Origin: Methanothrix sp.
GTDB taxonomy: Archaea; Halobacteriota; Methanosarcinia; Methanotrichales; Methanotrichaceae
Length of the DNA stretch: 64,000 bases
Direction: 5' to 3'
Assembly: GCA_026394555.1 (NCBI GenBank)
Contig: JAPKXZ010000075.1
Span: forward strand, 1-64,000
Position 1 is the stretch's first letter; every line of letters begins with the position of its first letter. The notes beneath the pieces were generated by a model, which saw only the letters and a list, made by a program, of their open reading frames with translations, did no database searches and was not told the DNA's origin. Below, piece by piece: positions 46,446 to 52,164 of this stretch. A program made the translations under genes and the position numbers.

Positions 46446-46904
46446 TTATTGGAATTTGCAATTGCCCGATTCGATATCATTTAGATTCTTAATAATATTG
46501 GCTTTGTGTGCAGTAGAGAGATTATGATATTCACAGATCGTCAGCACTCGGTGAAGTTCATCGCGCTGCATTGAAGCGGTATGCTGGGCAACATATAACA
46601 TTGTTTCCAGATATTCCTTCTCTTTTATCATATTTTCAATAATCTCTAAAAAAGCCGCATCAAATTTTATCTCAGAAGTACCGATATCCTTGATCACTCT
46701 TGCCAGTTTTTCGCTTGACTTTTGGCTGGCCATGTTCGCGGCCAAGGCTCTTTGGGCAAAATCCAGGGATGCATCAGAAACCCCATTCAATATTAGCTCG
46801 GACGCTAGTCTCTTCAGGGTCTTGCTCTGAAGAATAGTTTCCGATTCAAGAGCCAGAAAGGCTTCAGGGGTTATCTCTATCTTTGTGTATTTTGGGCCAG
46901 GCAT
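46446..46904 (-). CDS. Hypothetical all-helical protein
   Basis: The 152 residues are predicted largely helical, without membrane segments. It opens KYTKIEITPEAFLALESETI and has long amphipathic stretches (ALAANMASQKSSEKLARVIK; FLEIIENMIKEKEYLETMLY). I recognise no family. A TATAAAGG box lies about 45 bases upstream on the minus strand (46949-46956), consistent with its own promoter. It is an orphan at the edge of the small-gene region. Confidence 0.6.
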   Translation of the reverse strand: MPGPKYTKIEITPEAFLALESETILQSKTLKRLASELILNGVSDASLDFAQRALAANMASQKSSEKLARVIKDIGTSEIKFDAAFLEIIENMIKEKEYLETMLYVAQHTASMQRDELHRVLTICEYHNLSTAHKANIIKNLNDIESGNCKFQ

Positions 46905-47071
46905 TTTTCTCGCTGCACCTCATTTTTTCAATTCTTATGAGTTCCTTTATATCAATACTTATTACGCACGTTTATGTGTCATTTCTAAGACGGAGTTACC
47001 GCGCACCGTCCTAATACTGTAGTTAAAAGCAAGGAGCTGCTGCTTAAAAAAAGTATCTGCAAATGCCGCTT

Positions 47072-47131
47072 GGAAAAAGATAAATACTTTGAAAAAGGAT
47101 GAATTTGGAAAAAAGGAAAAATTGCCAAATT
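47072..47131 (+). promoter_or_regulatory. TATA box plus 30-nt inverted repeat before the 31-aa gene
   Basis: GGAAAAAGATAAATAC (47072-47087) is a good BRE/TATA. About 20 bases later the arms AATTTGG (47102-47108) and CCAAATT (47125-47131) form a 30-nt inverted repeat. The geometry (TATA, then a roughly 30-nt palindrome, then a strong ribosome-binding site and a very small membrane-protein gene) copies the TGTAAACC units with a different arm sequence. Confidence 0.45.
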
Positions 47132-47146
47132 GGGAGGAATAAGAAA

Positions 47147-47242
47147 ATGAAACTTGGTCATCAGGAGTTGGGCGTGTACCCATTGTGGGTAGGATTTTGG
47201 TTGGCTGCTATCATCATATCGATACTATTGGGTCCGACTTAA
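47147..47242 (+). CDS. Very small membrane protein, 31 aa
   Basis: A strong GGGAGGAA site precedes an ATG and 31 residues: a short polar start (MKLGHQELGVYPLWV) and one hydrophobic helix (GFWLAAIIISILLG). It is likely a membrane miniprotein, with no recognised family. It is supported by its ribosome-binding site and by a promoter-like TATA box 65 bases upstream. Confidence 0.6.
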   Translation: MKLGHQELGVYPLWVGFWLAAIIISILLGPT

Positions 47243-47463
47243 TGGCAGAGAATCTAAAAAGAATTCATTATGGCAGGATTCATGCTTAAGGGGATTGACC
47301 TCGATCTCACCTCCTTCATCCCCTATTTTCCCCCTATGAATCCAATTTTTAGCAGGAATAGCAACTAGCCGAATAGATTAGATAGCACAAAGTTTATGTG
47401 GGATGCAGTAGGAGAGGGCCTAGGTCTAGCGTATCCAATGTCCTGAATGGAGGTGAAAAATAG

Positions 47464-47574
47464 ATGCCAGATATCACGAGCCAGTTGATCGCCATAGTAT
47501 TATTCGGTCTTTGTACATTCATACTGCCAACTGTGTTCAACAGGTGGTCTGATAGCAGAGCAGGTGTTAGATAA
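47464..47574 (+). CDS. Very small membrane protein, 36 aa
   Basis: GGAGGTGAAAAATAG precedes an ATG and 36 residues with one central hydrophobic helix (LIAIVLFGLCTFILPTVF) and a basic, polar C-terminus (NRWSDSRAGVR). It follows the 31-aa gene by about 220 bp of sequence without another gene. A strong terminator-like hairpin lies 15 bases after the stop, which supports a real transcript. Confidence 0.6.
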   Translation: MPDITSQLIAIVLFGLCTFILPTVFNRWSDSRAGVR

Positions 47575-47588
47575 ACCTGGCTCTTTCG

Positions 47589-47610
47589 GATCCTGGCTCG
47601 TGCCAGGATC
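47589..47610 (+). terminator. Perfect 9-bp hairpin after the 36-aa gene
   Basis: GATCCTGGC and GCCAGGATC enclose a TCGT loop, followed after about 10 bases by AT-rich sequence (TATATTTATCTCTATTTTATC). This is a plausible terminator for the small gene. The remaining stretch to 47817 holds no gene I can support. Confidence 0.65.
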
Positions 47611-47817
47611 TGCATTATATTTATCTCTATTTTATCGTGGTAATTTTTTGGAACTTCTTAGTCAAACGGCGGCGAGGCAAGCAGACGGAACATGCCAGAT
47701 GCAGCTGATTAAGAATATAAGAATATCCTTAAATTGGTCCTTTGCGAAGAAAAAATCAATAACTTTGCTCTAAGTATATCTGAATAAGATACCATTTTCT
47801 GAACGACAAAAGGAAGA

Positions 47818-47970
47818 ATGATTCATTGTATCGGCTGTGGGGCTGAGTTCTCCACTGAGGAATTATTGATAGCCTGGCTTGAGGGCAAAATCCCTAACAC
47901 AATCAGCTGTCCTGTTAGCGGCAAGCTTGAGTCAACTCTTATGGAAAGACAAATCAAGGCAAGGGCATAA
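47818..47970 (+). CDS. Small cysteine-containing protein, 50 aa
   Basis: A short gene after AAAAGGAAG encodes 50 residues: MIHCIGCGAEFSTEELLIAW, then a Lys/Glu-rich tail. The CxxC plus a later Cys (TISCPVSG) could be a small zinc finger with three Cys and a His, but spacing is not that of a known family. No paralogue is seen in the window. It lies just upstream of the first TGTAAACC promoter unit. Confidence 0.55.
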   Translation: MIHCIGCGAEFSTEELLIAWLEGKIPNTISCPVSGKLESTLMERQIKARA

Positions 47971-47982
47971 GACTGGTTCCCA

Positions 47983-48041
47983 AGCGAAAATTCTTATACT
48001 TCCAAGCTTATGTAAACCTTGCCCAACGCCATGGGTTTACA
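47983..48041 (+). promoter_or_regulatory. TGTAAACC promoter-palindrome unit A (symporter)
   Basis: BRE-like AGCGAAAA, TATA TTCTTATAC (TTATAC starting 47994) and, exactly 17 bases from that point, a 31-nt inverted repeat at 48011-48041 with arms TGTAAACC and GGTTTACA. It matches units C, D and E in promoter, spacing and arms. The palindrome covers the expected transcription start, as an operator would, or forms the 5' hairpin of the RNA. It points toward the broken symporter gene. Confidence 0.8.
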
Positions 48042-48125
48042 CCGAAATTGTGGTGGGGTTTATCCACTATCCGGCCCGACAATAGAGAGCCAGCCAAAAA
48101 AAAGGTGCTGGCCCTCTATTTTCTC
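48018..48125 (+). ncRNA. Conserved leader or small RNA A
   Basis: After the palindrome come the motif TTGTGGTGGGG, a spacer, and a strong hairpin: AATAGAGAGCCAGC (48081-48094) pairs with GCTGGCCCTCTATT (48107-48120) with one mismatch, followed by TTCTCTT. The same order occurs in copies D and E. The hairpin sits between promoter and symporter start, so it would be either an attenuator or the 3' end of an RNA of about 105 nt. The 5' end is inferred from the TATA box. Confidence 0.55.
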
Positions 48126-48236
48126 TTATCAATTTTAATTATCAATCAGCATTGCAGTTACAGCTACAGAAAGAGATTTATAGGCTTGTCAACCTTCTCC
48201 GCGAAAAAGGGTTTACAATTTCGTGAGGCATGGTTT

Positions 48237-49542
48237 ATGAATCCGGCTGCCGTCGTAATAGTCATCTACTTGCTGGCGATGCTTGTCATCGGTGCTTGGG
48301 GGCACCGCCTGAAAGGACTGGAGGATTTTCACCTGGCGGGGCGGAGCATAAAACTGGTTCTTCTTACAGGCACTTTCTGTGCCACTATCATTGGCGCTTC
48401 GGCAACTCTGGGCATGGCGGGCCTGGGCTTCAGCAAAGGCCTGCCGGGCGCATGGTGGATGCTCTCCGGTACGGCTGGCCTGCTGGTGCTGGCGATCTTT
48501 TTTGCCGAGAAAGTGAGAGCTACCGGATGCTACACTCTGCCTGAACTGGTGGGCTCCTTTTATGGAGGGAGGGCAAGGTTTGTCGCCTCCGCTCTCATTG
48601 TTATCTCCTGGGTGGGAGTCATTGCCGTGCAGATAGTGGCCTGCGGCAAGGTGCTGGGCGCCGTATTCGGAGGAAACGATACTTTATTCATGGCAGCATG
48701 TACGGCAGTCTTCGTGCTCTACACAGCTCATGGAGGGCAGAGCTCGGTGATAAGGACCGACCTGGTACAGCTCATGATAATATTAGCAGGAATGATAGTT
48801 CTGTTTTTCAGAGCATCAGAGGTAGCTGGACTGGGGTTGCTCTTTCGCCAGAGCTTTCCCACTTCGGCAGATATGGGCGGATGGAACGTGTTGTCCATGC
48901 TGCTGGTTGTCGGCTCGGCATACCTGGTCGGGCCGGATATGTATTCTCGTCTGCTCTCTGCCCATACCCCCAGAGAAGCAAAGATATCAGCGGCGATCGC
49001 AGCCGTCATCCTCATTCCCCTGGCCTTCCTCATCACATCCCTGGGCATCTTCGCCCGGTCGCTTTCTCTCGCCCGCCATGGAGGGCCTGGTGGCCGCAGC
49101 TCTCCTGGCAGCATTCATGTCCTCAGCGGACACGAGCCTGATGACGGCTACCTCCATTTTAACTCTGGATATTTACAGAAAGGCAAAGCCGGCTTCGAGT
49201 GAAGAGAAACTGATGACCGTCTCAAGGCTGTTTGCGTTAATCATAGGGCTTTTGGCTTTGGCATTAGCTGTTTCCTTGCCCAGCATCATCAAGACTCTGC
49301 TTATCGCTTATACTGTCTTTACCAGTGGTCTGCTCTTACCGGTTATTGCCGGATTTTACAGAGAGCGGCTGGGCCTTACGCCTTCCGGCGCGCTGGCAGC
49401 GCTGCTGGGGGGCGGAGTAACCGCAATCTTCCTGGGCCAGACGTATCCTCTGCTTGGCATGGCGGTATCCGCAGCATTCCTATTCGGGGTAAGCTGGTTG
49501 GAGAAACAGTATACGGAGCAGGAATGCAAGAGCGTGGTTTAG
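48237..49542 (+). pseudogene. Sodium:solute symporter (SSS family), broken by an internal deletion
   Basis: The first frame (ATG 48237, MNPAAVVIVIYLLAMLVIG) runs through about nine membrane segments to LGIFARSL near 49065. The second frame resumes at SPAMEGLVAAALLAAFMSSA and continues to 49542. About 20 residues that normally lie between these motifs are missing and the frame has shifted, so a small deletion (my estimate is 60-70 bp) removed an extracellular loop. The conserved ADTSLMTA sodium-site region is intact downstream. The substrate is unknown; acetate or an amino acid is possible. Promoter unit A lies upstream. Confidence 0.75.
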
Positions 49543-49556
49543 ACAACTAGGCATTC

Positions 49557-49617
49557 AACGATAAAGCATTTATACTTCCATGTATATGTAAACCCGACCC
49601 AATCACATGGGCTTACA
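49557..49617 (+). promoter_or_regulatory. TGTAAACC promoter-palindrome unit C (52-aa gene)
   Basis: ACGATAAAGCATTTATAC (BRE plus TATA) precedes a 31-nt inverted repeat at 49587-49617 with arms TGTAAACCC and GGGCTTACA. The distance from TTATAC to the repeat is 17 bases, as in units A and D. Unlike A, D and E it lacks the long leader: GTGGAGGG follows within 20 bases and serves as the ribosome-binding site of the 52-aa gene. Confidence 0.8.
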
Positions 49618-49647
49618 ATTGTTCATAATAATGTGGAGGGAAAAGAA

Positions 49648-49806
49648 ATGCAAACAAGTGGCATGATCGGTGGAGTATTGTTTGTTATAGGGATCGCCGC
49701 GATATTCACTTCAGGCGGCAATACTATGATGATGGTTATTGGGGATGCATGTGTTGCAGCAGCAGGCATAGCTATTGTTGCTTTGGGAAACAAAAAAGCT
49801 GCCTAG
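49648..49806 (+). CDS. Small membrane protein, 52 aa
   Basis: The ATG is preceded by GTGGAGGGAAAAGAA. The 52 residues form two hydrophobic helices (GMIGGVLFVIGIAAIFTSGG and MMMVIGDACVAAAGIAIVAL) joined by a short Gly/Asn turn, ending in basic GNKKAA. It is probably a helical-hairpin membrane miniprotein. It is under promoter unit C, so it should be co-regulated with the helix-turn-helix gene at 50099. No family is recognised. Confidence 0.7.
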   Translation: MQTSGMIGGVLFVIGIAAIFTSGGNTMMMVIGDACVAAAGIAIVALGNKKAA

Positions 49807-49939
49807 GCCGCCGCCCAAATATATATTTTTTGAATGAATAACCCCTAGCTTGCTCTGGGGTGCACCTTTTTGCAGTTATCTCAGAGAACTGCCGGGCCTT
49901 ATGCTATTTTGCGCTGCAATGATCATAAAATGCAGGTGA

Positions 49940-50050
49940 AAAGAGGATAGAGGGGGCCGGTATTCCCTTACTGGCCCCTATTGTTGGGCGGATGATGGCC
50001 AAATCGCACCGCAACGCAGCGGTTCTGTAAACCCATGCCATTGGGTATAG
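49940..50050 (-). ncRNA. Orphan small RNA candidate D
   Basis: Promoter unit D points leftward with no gene before the end of the opposite-strand 52-aa gene. The leader it would transcribe matches copies A and E (the CATCATCC spacer, then a GC hairpin) and ends in a hairpin (49951-49979, arms AGGGGCC.GTA and TAC.GGCCCCT) followed by CTATCCTCTTTT, a convincing terminator. The product would be about 110 nt. Both ends are inferred from the TATA box and hairpin, not observed. Confidence 0.6.
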
Positions 50051-50083
50051 TTTACATCAGCTCGGGAGTATAAATGCTTTTTC
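50026..50083 (-). promoter_or_regulatory. TGTAAACC promoter-palindrome unit D
   Basis: On the minus strand ACGAAAAAGCATTTATACTC precedes a 31-nt inverted repeat (50026-50056) with arms TGTAAAC and GTTTACA, again 17 bases from TTATAC. It lies just beyond the stop of the helix-turn-helix gene and drives no open reading frame. Confidence 0.8.
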
Positions 50084-50098
50084 GTGCCTTCTATCAAA

Positions 50099-50584
50099 TC
50101 AAATGTCCCGCGCCTTGATCCAAACAATAATGTTGTGGGTGTTTTTGCTCAATTTATAACCTCGGCGTCGCAGTGCAGTTCTAACGCAGTCGCGGTCTAC
50201 TCCATTTATTTTCGCGATCCTGCCAATTTCGGATCTGTCAAAAAACTGTAGCTGTCTGGCTTCGCATTTGGCAATATAATCTTCCAAGGAGGCGATCCTT
50301 TTGTTATGATTCATGCGTTCGCCTTCTTTGCTCTTCCAGATCATTCGGCCATGACCGTTATTGGTCAATTGATAGCCGAGCCTTCTAAGCTCACAGCGAA
50401 TTCGCTCCGGAGATAAGCCAAAACGACCGGCTATCGATTGAACCTCTCGGCGATCATAGATGCAGGATCTAAAATGGCTGCTATTTGAAAGATAGATTTC
50501 AAGGTTGTGAATAGTCTTATCAGTCGGTTGGGTTACAGGTGGGTTTACTGAATCTAGACCGGTTTTCAGTATGCACTTTGTCAT
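50099..50584 (-). CDS. Protein with two tandem helix-turn-helix repeats
   Basis: The product is about 161 residues. Two repeats can be aligned: DRREVQSIAGRFGLSPERIR then ELRRLGYQL and MIWK; and DRSEIGRIAKINGVDRDCVR then ALRRRGYKL and IVWIK. Each has the spacing of a helix-turn-helix, so the protein should bind DNA with two heads or a palindrome. It is flanked on both sides by TGTAAACC palindromes (D and E), and E is its own promoter, so autoregulation is likely. I start it at ATG 50584; the open frame upstream translates only repeat element E. No known family is assigned. Confidence 0.65.
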   Translation of the reverse strand: MTKCILKTGLDSVNPPVTQPTDKTIHNLEIYLSNSSHFRSCIYDRREVQSIAGRFGLSPERIRCELRRLGYQLTNNGHGRMIWKSKEGERMNHNKRIASLEDYIAKCEARQLQFFDRSEIGRIAKINGVDRDCVRTALRRRGYKLSKNTHNIIVWIKARDI

Positions 50585-50629
50585 ATTCGCCTTGGCTGGA
50601 AGCATCTTTGGATGATTGGCTGTGATTGA

Positions 50630-50730
50630 GGATAGAAGGCCAGTATTCTCTTGCCGGCCCTCAATCGTATGGTGGATGATGACAGAACCCCCTCCACAAT
50701 GCGGCGTAAACCTTTGCATTGAGGTGTGGT
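50630..50730 (-). ncRNA. Conserved leader E of the helix-turn-helix gene
   Basis: Between palindrome E and the helix-turn-helix gene lies a leader with CGCATTGTGGAGGGGG, CATCATCC and a hairpin (about 50635-50662, GAGGGCCGG against CTGGCCTTC) followed by TATCCTC. The order and motifs match copies A and D. Its hairpin is weaker than the others and no T-run follows, so it may act as a leader rather than terminate. The gene starts about 45 bases later. Confidence 0.5.
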
Positions 50731-50762
50731 TTACAGCGCTTGGAAGTATAAATGCTTTTTCG
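50705..50762 (-). promoter_or_regulatory. TGTAAACC promoter-palindrome unit E (helix-turn-helix gene)
   Basis: On the minus strand GCGAAAAAGCATTTATACTT precedes the inverted repeat 50705-50735 with arms TGTAAACC and GGTTTACG; spacing from TTATAC is 16. It directs transcription into the two-repeat helix-turn-helix gene. Confidence 0.8.
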
Positions 50763-50807
50763 CGTATCGTGCATTTAGCACGGATAAGAAGAAGGTAGAA
50801 AAGGCTA

Positions 50808-51623
50808 TCACTCGAAGTTTTCGGGAATGGATTTGTCCAGGAAGCCAGCTATGCCTCCCGGATAATAGACCTCCAAAGCATCGAGTTCCGCCATCTTTCT
50901 TGGATCAAGAGAGTGCGATTTCAGATATCTCTTGAACCTTTCTTGGTTCTCTTTCGAATCATTACTTCTCGAGACCATGGGAATCTTAAGCTCCATAACC
51001 TGATCGGGCTTGAGACCAAGGCATTTTACTCTGATATCTGCATTGCATCCCGGTGGCTTTAATTTTGCAATCTTCGTCGCCAGATCCTGGCAAAAGAACG
51101 CACTGCTGGAACTCAGGTCGGAGAGACAGAGAATGACGGTCGGAGAGTCGCAGCGCCGGTACAGGGCTTCGATGGCCTCCTCCGAGGCACTGCCACTGAC
51201 AGAGACGAGGGTTACCTGGTGTTTCTCACAGACCGGACCTATTAATGGATTTAGCGCTGACTTATTCAGCCAAACTTCGATGGAATTGGATCTTCCGGGA
51301 GAACTCTCCGACAAGAACAGGTGCTCTCCCGGAATCTCATCTAGAATGGCGTCCGCAGGAATGAAACCCAGCTTTCTGGCTTTGCTCATCCACTTGGAAA
51401 GCTTCTCGCCATCGCTTTCATGGTAAGGCCGTGTGATCCGAATCTCGCCTACGAACCATCCACAAATAGGATAATCTGTCTCCTTCCTTTGCATCGCATA
51501 GTAAAACATGGCTCGAAGCGTGGTCCTCGACCTGCCGATGTCCCTTACAAAATTACGATATACTTCTGCCAACCACCGGGACTTGGTTCGATCCGTTTCA
51601 GTATCTACAAATGGTTCGGTCAT
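50808..51623 (-). CDS. Winged-helix plus Toprim-like protein with degraded catalytic residues
   Basis: The product is about 271 residues. The first half (RTTLRAMFYYAMQ, then GEKLSKWMSKARKLGFIPAD) looks like the winged-helix region of Spo11/topoisomerase VI A-like proteins carried by mobile elements. The second half (IEVWLNKSALNPLIGPVCEK; VSVSGSASEEA; VILCLSDLSSSS) follows their Toprim fold, but the Glu usually in EVWxEK is Asn and the Asp-x-Asp motif is reduced to SDLSSSS, so cleavage activity is probably lost. ATG 51623 is used; a TATATATT box about 30 bases upstream suggests a nearly leaderless transcript. Assignment is by pattern only. Confidence 0.5.
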   Translation of the reverse strand: MTEPFVDTETDRTKSRWLAEVYRNFVRDIGRSRTTLRAMFYYAMQRKETDYPICGWFVGEIRITRPYHESDGEKLSKWMSKARKLGFIPADAILDEIPGEHLFLSESSPGRSNSIEVWLNKSALNPLIGPVCEKHQVTLVSVSGSASEEAIEALYRRCDSPTVILCLSDLSSSSAFFCQDLATKIAKLKPPGCNADIRVKCLGLKPDQVMELKIPMVSRSNDSKENQERFKRYLKSHSLDPRKMAELDALEVYYPGGIAGFLDKSIPENFE

Positions 51624-51798
51624 ATCTGTATTTCCTATTGATGCCAAAATATATAGATTAGAGCGTTTCCGCAAGTATACCATCCGAAACTGAAAACGAA
51701 GATTCCTGAGGGGGCTGGATGGTGCAGAAGCTTTCGGTTATGGAGCGGATACTTAATGAGGAGGCAACCTGAAAGAAGTGCTTTAACCATTGGAGGCT

Positions 51799-52164
51799 AT
51801 GCATTTGACAAAGAAATTCACCGATTTAACACCCAGCGATCTGACCCGGCTGCCCAATCTTTCCGAATATCACTATTGCGTAGGCGTGGAGCGCATCTAT
51901 CTGCACCTATTCAACGAAAAGAATATGCACTGGTATATGGCGGAGTACGGGCCGATTAGCAAGAAATTCTTCGGTTTTTTCGAGAACAGGTCCGACGGAA
52001 TATCCTCGGGATTTTGTACCATGGAAGATATGATGAAATGGTGCAAGAAGGGCGGAGCATGGGAGCCGTTGGTTGACGAGAACTGGAAGCCGACGGAGGC
52101 CAGAGAAGTCCTCTCTTTGCAGGGATATATCAAAATGATGATATGCCCGCCGGATATGCTGTGA
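51799..52164 (+). CDS. DUF2958-like protein
   Basis: This roughly 121-residue protein contains ERIYLHLFNEKNMHWYMAEY then KFFGFFENRSDG, the pattern of DUF2958 proteins, which are small and typical of plasmids, phages and integrated elements. Function is unknown. The start is uncertain: ATG 51799 sits too close to a GGAGG, so the TTG at 51805 may be the true start. It supports the idea that 46-52 kb is an accessory island. Confidence 0.6.
   Translation: MHLTKKFTDLTPSDLTRLPNLSEYHYCVGVERIYLHLFNEKNMHWYMAEYGPISKKFFGFFENRSDGISSGFCTMEDMMKWCKKGGAWEPLVDENWKPTEAREVLSLQGYIKMMICPPDML

What the first reader, a model, noticed from the sequence alone, without database searches (positions are those of the whole stretch)
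47983..50762. Four near-identical promoter units with a 31-nt TGTAAACC/GGTTTACA palindrome
Seen directly: units at 47983-48041 (+), 49557-49617 (+), 50026-50083 (-) and 50705-50762 (-) share a BRE, CATTTATAC-type TATA box and a 31-nt inverted repeat starting 16-17 bases from TTATAC. Arms and spacing are conserved while the centre varies, the mark of a protein or RNA-structure site. The units drive a symporter, a 52-aa membrane protein, a helix-turn-helix gene and an orphan RNA. Inference: a local regulon whose regulator is the helix-turn-helix protein, binding at the transcription start. I know of no described system with this layout.
Basis: partly seen in the sequence, partly recalled or inferred. 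Interest (0 to 1): 0.88.

Follow-up and report, generated by a model that had tools for sequence, protein, structure and literature searches.

The report
Biotin-repressor operator cluster in Methanothrix
The repeated palindrome is the long-known DNA landing site of the biotin repressor BirA, here in a methane-making archaeon, where it sits next to the gene of a membrane symporter that is very probably this group's missing biotin (vitamin B7) importer.

Summary
The palindrome is the published BirA operator (TTGTAAACC-[N14/15]-GGTTTACAA, PMC545781). The genome has one biotin ligase, BirA with an N-terminal HTH_11 domain, beside pyruvate carboxylase. In sister-family Methanosarcinaceae the same box precedes the biotin transporter gene bioY; a matrix trained only on those bioY boxes ranks the five sites as the top five in the window. 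In the window's family (37 Methanothrix-type genomes) BioY and bioB are absent, and the box precedes orthologues of the symporter (27 of 32 loci), nearly always without the helix-turn-helix gene. In Dehalococcoidia a related symporter lies directly behind birA, whose promoter carries the box. Best reading: a BirA biotin regulon in which an SSF symporter has replaced BioY. The cluster's extras (52-aa protein, tandem winged-HTH gene, orphan RNA) are a local expansion; three of five units share a ~90-nt hairpin RNA leader of unknown function. This genome's symporter carries a 50-nt frameshifting deletion.

The parts
   Evidence: (best-scoring site of the window with the bioY-trained matrix, 27.8 of 30 bits); orthologous position in relatives
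48177..48183 (+). TATA box (TTTATAG) of u5
   Evidence: read from sequence
48011..48041 (+). u1: BirA-type operator, perfect arms; TTATAC at 47994-47999
   Evidence: conserved in G021 and G013
48042..48132 (+). u1 leader RNA element (hairpin family, model R1)
48237..49542 (+). SSF-family symporter, candidate biotin importer; in this genome broken by a 50-nt deletion and frameshift near 49067
   Evidence: Pfam SSF; orthologues; deletion against G021
49587..49617 (+). u2: BirA-type operator of the 52-aa ORF; TTATAC at 49570-49575
   Evidence: conserved in G021 and, with 3 mismatches, in G013
49648..49806 (+). 52-aa hydrophobic protein, no family known
   Evidence: homologues
50026..50056 (-). 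u3: BirA-type operator of the orphan RNA; TTATAC (minus strand) at 50068-50073
49936..50020 (-). u3 leader/orphan RNA element (hairpin family R1)
50705..50735 (-). u4: BirA-type operator of the helix-turn-helix gene; TTATAC (minus strand) at 50746-50751
50619..50705 (-). u4 leader RNA element in the 5' UTR of the helix-turn-helix gene (family R1)
50099..50584 (-). 161-aa protein with two tandem winged helix-turn-helix domains
   Evidence: orthologues in G021, G013, G016

Best explanation
The palindrome is the operator of the bifunctional biotin ligase/repressor BirA. When biotin is plentiful and the carboxyl-carrier protein of pyruvate carboxylase is already biotinylated, BirA loaded with biotinyl-5'-AMP dimerises and binds the box, which lies on the transcription start just behind the TATA box, and blocks initiation. 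When biotin is scarce the promoters open. The principal conserved target is an SSF-family symporter that imports biotin in Methanothrix and relatives in place of the absent BioY. In a subclade (window genome, G021, G013, partly G016) the same promoter-operator module also controls a 52-aa membrane protein, a tandem winged-HTH protein and an orphan RNA, and three of the five units carry a shared hairpin leader. Shown: motif, operator position, gene associations, BirA domains, absence of BioY and bioB. Inferred: BirA binding, biotin response, transport of biotin, and any function of the extras.
For: Published consensus TTGTAAACC-[N14/15]-GGTTTACAA (PMC545781) matches letter for letter in the arms. 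The only BPL of the genome is BirA with HTH_11 + BPL + BPL_C, its N-terminus aligning with E. coli BirA, directly behind pycA. The box precedes bioY in 13 of 20 Methanosarcinaceae loci (<=3 mismatches; 0.15 expected) and bioY-ECF operons. A matrix from those bioY boxes alone puts the five sites first in 64 kb (19.4-27.8 bits; next 14.1). The box precedes 27 of 32 symporter orthologue loci (about 0.2 expected), mostly at -34 to -76. BioY is absent in all 37 family genomes and present in the other 24; no bioB above cut-off in 61. Dehalococcoidia: box, then birA, then symporter.
Against: No binding, expression or uptake data. The symporter meets no substrate-specific family cut-off, and its sequence similarity to the mammalian multivitamin transporter is weak (E 4e-5). 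The symporter of this very genome is frameshifted, and no second copy of its clade was found. A few orthologues lack a recognisable box. birA's repressor-domain model is just under its cut-off (63.6 against 70 bits). The link of the 52-aa protein, HTH gene and RNA to biotin rests on the operators alone.
Confidence: 0.86

Rival explanations
1. The tandem winged-HTH protein (50099-50584) is the regulator, binding its own and neighbouring promoters.
For: It is encoded inside the cluster under its own copy of the box, is predicted to carry two winged-HTH domains, and all strong boxes of the genome lie within 2.7 kb of it.
Against: The box stands before symporter orthologues in more than 20 genomes with no close orthologue of the protein, and before bioY in another family. 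The box sequence equals the BirA consensus.
Confidence: 0.06
2. BirA governs the boxes, but the symporter carries something other than biotin (pantothenate, lipoate or a sugar).
For: Distant sequence similarity to PanF, PutP and sugar symporters, no specific cut-off met; the SSF family is diverse.
Against: BirA regulons are dominated by biotin supply genes; family-wide absence of BioY and bioB leaves a biotin importer missing; the box-birA-symporter arrangement occurs independently in Dehalococcoidia.
Confidence: 0.13
3. The palindrome acts as an RNA hairpin rather than as a DNA operator.
For: Palindromic in DNA, hence foldable; an RNA hairpin family does follow in three units.
Against: With the TATA box 16-17 nt upstream the transcript is expected to start inside the palindrome, so it would not contain both arms; the TATA-to-box spacing differs between orthologues; the arms match a known DNA-binding consensus.
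Confidence: 0.03

Closest known systems
BirA biotin regulon of bacteria and archaea (TTGTAAACC-[N14/15]-GGTTTACAA; Rodionov et al. 2002, cited in PMC545781)
   Same: Operator sequence and spacing, group II BirA in the genome, operator at the promoter, association with biotin supply.
   Different: Main target is an SSF symporter instead of bio genes or bioY; five boxes clustered in 2.7 kb; extra targets (52-aa protein, tandem wHTH gene, orphan RNA).
BioY / BioMNY ECF biotin transporter of Methanosarcinaceae
   Same: Same operator directly upstream.
   Different: Unrelated transporter family; absent from the window's family.
SSF-family sodium symporters (PanF, PutP, SGLT, SMVT/SLC5A6)
   Same: Pfam SSF domain over the whole protein; SMVT carries biotin (PMC8747999).
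   Different: Below the cut-off of every substrate-specific model; only weak similarity to SMVT.
pyc-birA cluster of Methanosarcina barkeri (Mukhopadhyay et al. 2001, cited in PMC3199775)
   Same: A bifunctional birA lies beside a pyruvate carboxylase gene here too.
   Different: No operator found at pycA-birA in this genome.

Membership tests
BirA biotin regulon | Operator TTGTAAACC-N14-16-GGTTTACAA | tested here: met
   five sites within one mismatch in the 8-nt arms, spacer 15
BirA biotin regulon | Biotin ligase with N-terminal DNA-binding domain in the genome | tested here: met
   single BPL with HTH_11, BPL_LplA_LipB, BPL_C (repressor-domain model TIGR00122 slightly under its cut-off)
BirA biotin regulon | Operator at promoters of biotin synthesis or transport genes | tested here: inconclusive
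   met for bioY in the sister family; in the window's family it precedes an SSF symporter whose substrate is inferred
BirA biotin regulon | Biotin-dependent binding and repression by BirA | not testable with these tools
   needs gel shift or expression data
SSF symporter family | Pfam SSF domain over full length | tested here: met
   PF00474, 133 bits for the intact orthologue
PanF / PutP symporters | Score above the equivalog cut-off | tested here: not met
   77 of 328 and 97 of 515 bits
BioY biotin transporters | Pfam BioY domain | tested here: not met
   none in the genome or family
Known RNA families (leader hairpin element) | Match to an Rfam model | tested here: not met
   nothing near a gathering score in 46500-52000

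The most novel reading that the evidence does not exclude
A biotin-controlled small-RNA circuit in Methanothrix: BirA operators drive a multi-copy structured RNA family (about 90 nt; u1, u3, u4 and relatives in five other genomes) together with a tandem winged-HTH protein, adding a second regulatory layer to biotin uptake by a new class of archaeal biotin importer.
Probability: 0.25. Interest if true: 0.68.

Novelty: new variant of a known kind. Interest (0 to 1): 0.5.

Why it matters
Methanothrix is a major acetate-consuming methanogen. Its family lacks BioY and recognisable bioB, so how it obtains biotin was open; the operator points to one conserved symporter as importer and makes that directly testable. 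It would add an SSF-type importer to the short list of prokaryotic biotin transporters and show a BirA regulon that has spread to a small membrane protein, a DNA-binding protein and an RNA.

Tried and rejected
Local helix-turn-helix regulator: rejected because the box occurs without the gene. Rfam match for the orphan RNA: none. Structure comparison of the tandem wHTH model (pLDDT 74.7): no match at E <= 0.001, best hits generic winged helices. BirA box at pycA-birA: none. Covariation of the leader hairpin: 87% of cells paired and slid controls clearly lower, but both-side changes only modestly above shuffles (10 against 6.1 cells; 22 of 500 shuffles as high), so a conserved hairpin is likely but not proven. 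52-aa protein as a biotin protein: its more distant homologues elsewhere have no box. Literature: no held paper found naming an SSF biotin transporter in archaea or a Methanothrix BirA regulon; Rodionov 2002 itself is not held.

Full report
What was checked. The four units exist as described. The window gives five hits within 3 mismatches against 0.09 in shuffles. Across the 2.53-Mb genome these five are the only sites within one mismatch.

What the motif is. The palindrome equals the published operator of the biotin repressor/ligase BirA, TTGTAAACC-[N14/15]-GGTTTACAA (PMC545781); even the TGTCAACC variant of site 48187 is among the published sites listed there. The genome has one biotin protein ligase. 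It carries an N-terminal HTH_11 domain, the ligase domain and the C-terminal domain, aligns over the N-terminus with E. coli BirA, and lies directly behind a biotin carboxylase (pycA) gene.

Independent test in relatives. In two Methanosarcinaceae genomes the one-mismatch site lies just upstream of bioY and its ECF partner genes. In 20 bioY loci of that family, 13 have a box within 3 mismatches, 0.15 expected. A symmetric weight matrix trained only on these 13 bioY boxes was run over the 64-kb window. The five cluster sites came out first (27.8, 22.4, 22.1, 21.0, 19.4 bits); the next site scored 14.1, and the maximum in five shuffled windows was 17.8.

The conserved target. In the window's own family the box is upstream of orthologues of the SSF symporter: 27 of 32 loci within 3 mismatches, about 0.2 expected, mostly 34-76 bp before the start (one further locus is cut by its contig end). 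Only G021, G013 and G016 hold close orthologues of the helix-turn-helix protein, so the box does not depend on it. BioY is absent from all 37 genomes of this family and present in all 24 others examined; no genome has a bioB above the curated cut-off. The symporter clade (over 50% identity) is found, complete or partial, in nearly all genomes of the family and in none of the others. Named records show these to be Methanothrix/Methanosaeta and Methanotrichaceae. In two Dehalococcoidia assemblies a 43%-identical symporter directly follows birA, and a box TGTCAACC-N14-GGTTGACA stands just before birA. This supports a biotin role from an unrelated lineage.

How it probably works. The TATA box lies 16-17 nt before the palindrome in u1-u4 and closer in u5, so transcription is expected to start inside the palindrome (inference from archaeal promoter geometry). 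BirA bound there would block initiation; biotinyl-5'-AMP is the co-repressor in the known systems (general knowledge). Biotin shortage would release the symporter. Binding, response and substrate were not shown here.

The extras. u2 precedes a 52-aa hydrophobic protein, u4 a protein predicted to have two tandem winged-HTH domains, and u3 an orphan RNA. u1, u3 and u4 share after the palindrome a ~90-nt element with a long hairpin. A covariance model finds it three times each in the window genome, G021 and G013, and once each in G002, G016 and G010. Two of these, in G013 and G010, were not in the training set; the G013 copy again follows a palindrome, with symmetric changes in both arms, and the G010 copy has none. 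Covariation is suggestive, not decisive. No Rfam family matches. The role is unknown: a small RNA, or a leader that ends or tunes transcription, are both possible.

Caveats. The window genome's symporter has a 50-nt deletion relative to G021 that shifts the frame. It may be a true lesion or an assembly error. Substrate-specific family models do not assign the symporter. Genome-wide mismatch scans used spacer 15 only.

Verdict. A real and clean signal, but the regulator and operator are of a known kind. The new parts are the SSF symporter as probable biotin importer of Methanotrichaceae, the cluster of five operators, and an unassigned RNA element under them.

Noticed in passing
L047:5975-6005; L188, L189, L194 (upstream of an archaeal-type PEP carboxylase-like gene in Methanosarcinaceae genomes G049, G046, G041): BirA-type boxes (1, 2 and 3 mismatches) stand right behind a TATA-like sequence about 150 bp before the CTQHPD motif of a PEP carboxylase-like gene, the biotin-independent route to oxaloacetate; BirA may switch from pyruvate carboxylase to PEP carboxylase when biotin is short. 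Five other orthologues have only weak or no boxes.
   Followed up: partly
window 49060-49070: 50-nt deletion with frameshift in the symporter gene compared with G021; the deleted stretch is flanked by the short repeat GCTT.
   Followed up: partly
L157:1471-1594 and L061:3905-4021 (genome G013): Two palindromes in G013 changed symmetrically in both arms (CGTAAACTT..AAGTTTACG), at the helix-turn-helix leader and at an orphan copy of the RNA element, while the symporter-distal box u1 kept CC/GG.
   Followed up: partly
L056:378-490 (G002) and L133:1501-1585 (G010): Copies of the RNA element beside an MFS-type transporter gene, with no symporter or helix-turn-helix gene seen in the stretch held; G002 has a perfect-arm operator, G010 has none.
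   Followed up: partly
L115 (genome G021, second locus): A second, 72%-identical symporter copy with its own one-mismatch box about 54 bp before its start.
   Followed up: no
window 50808-51683 (-): 291-aa protein without Pfam or NCBIfam match; homologues lie beside the symporter in G001 and G002 and beside the 52-aa gene in G013.
   Followed up: no
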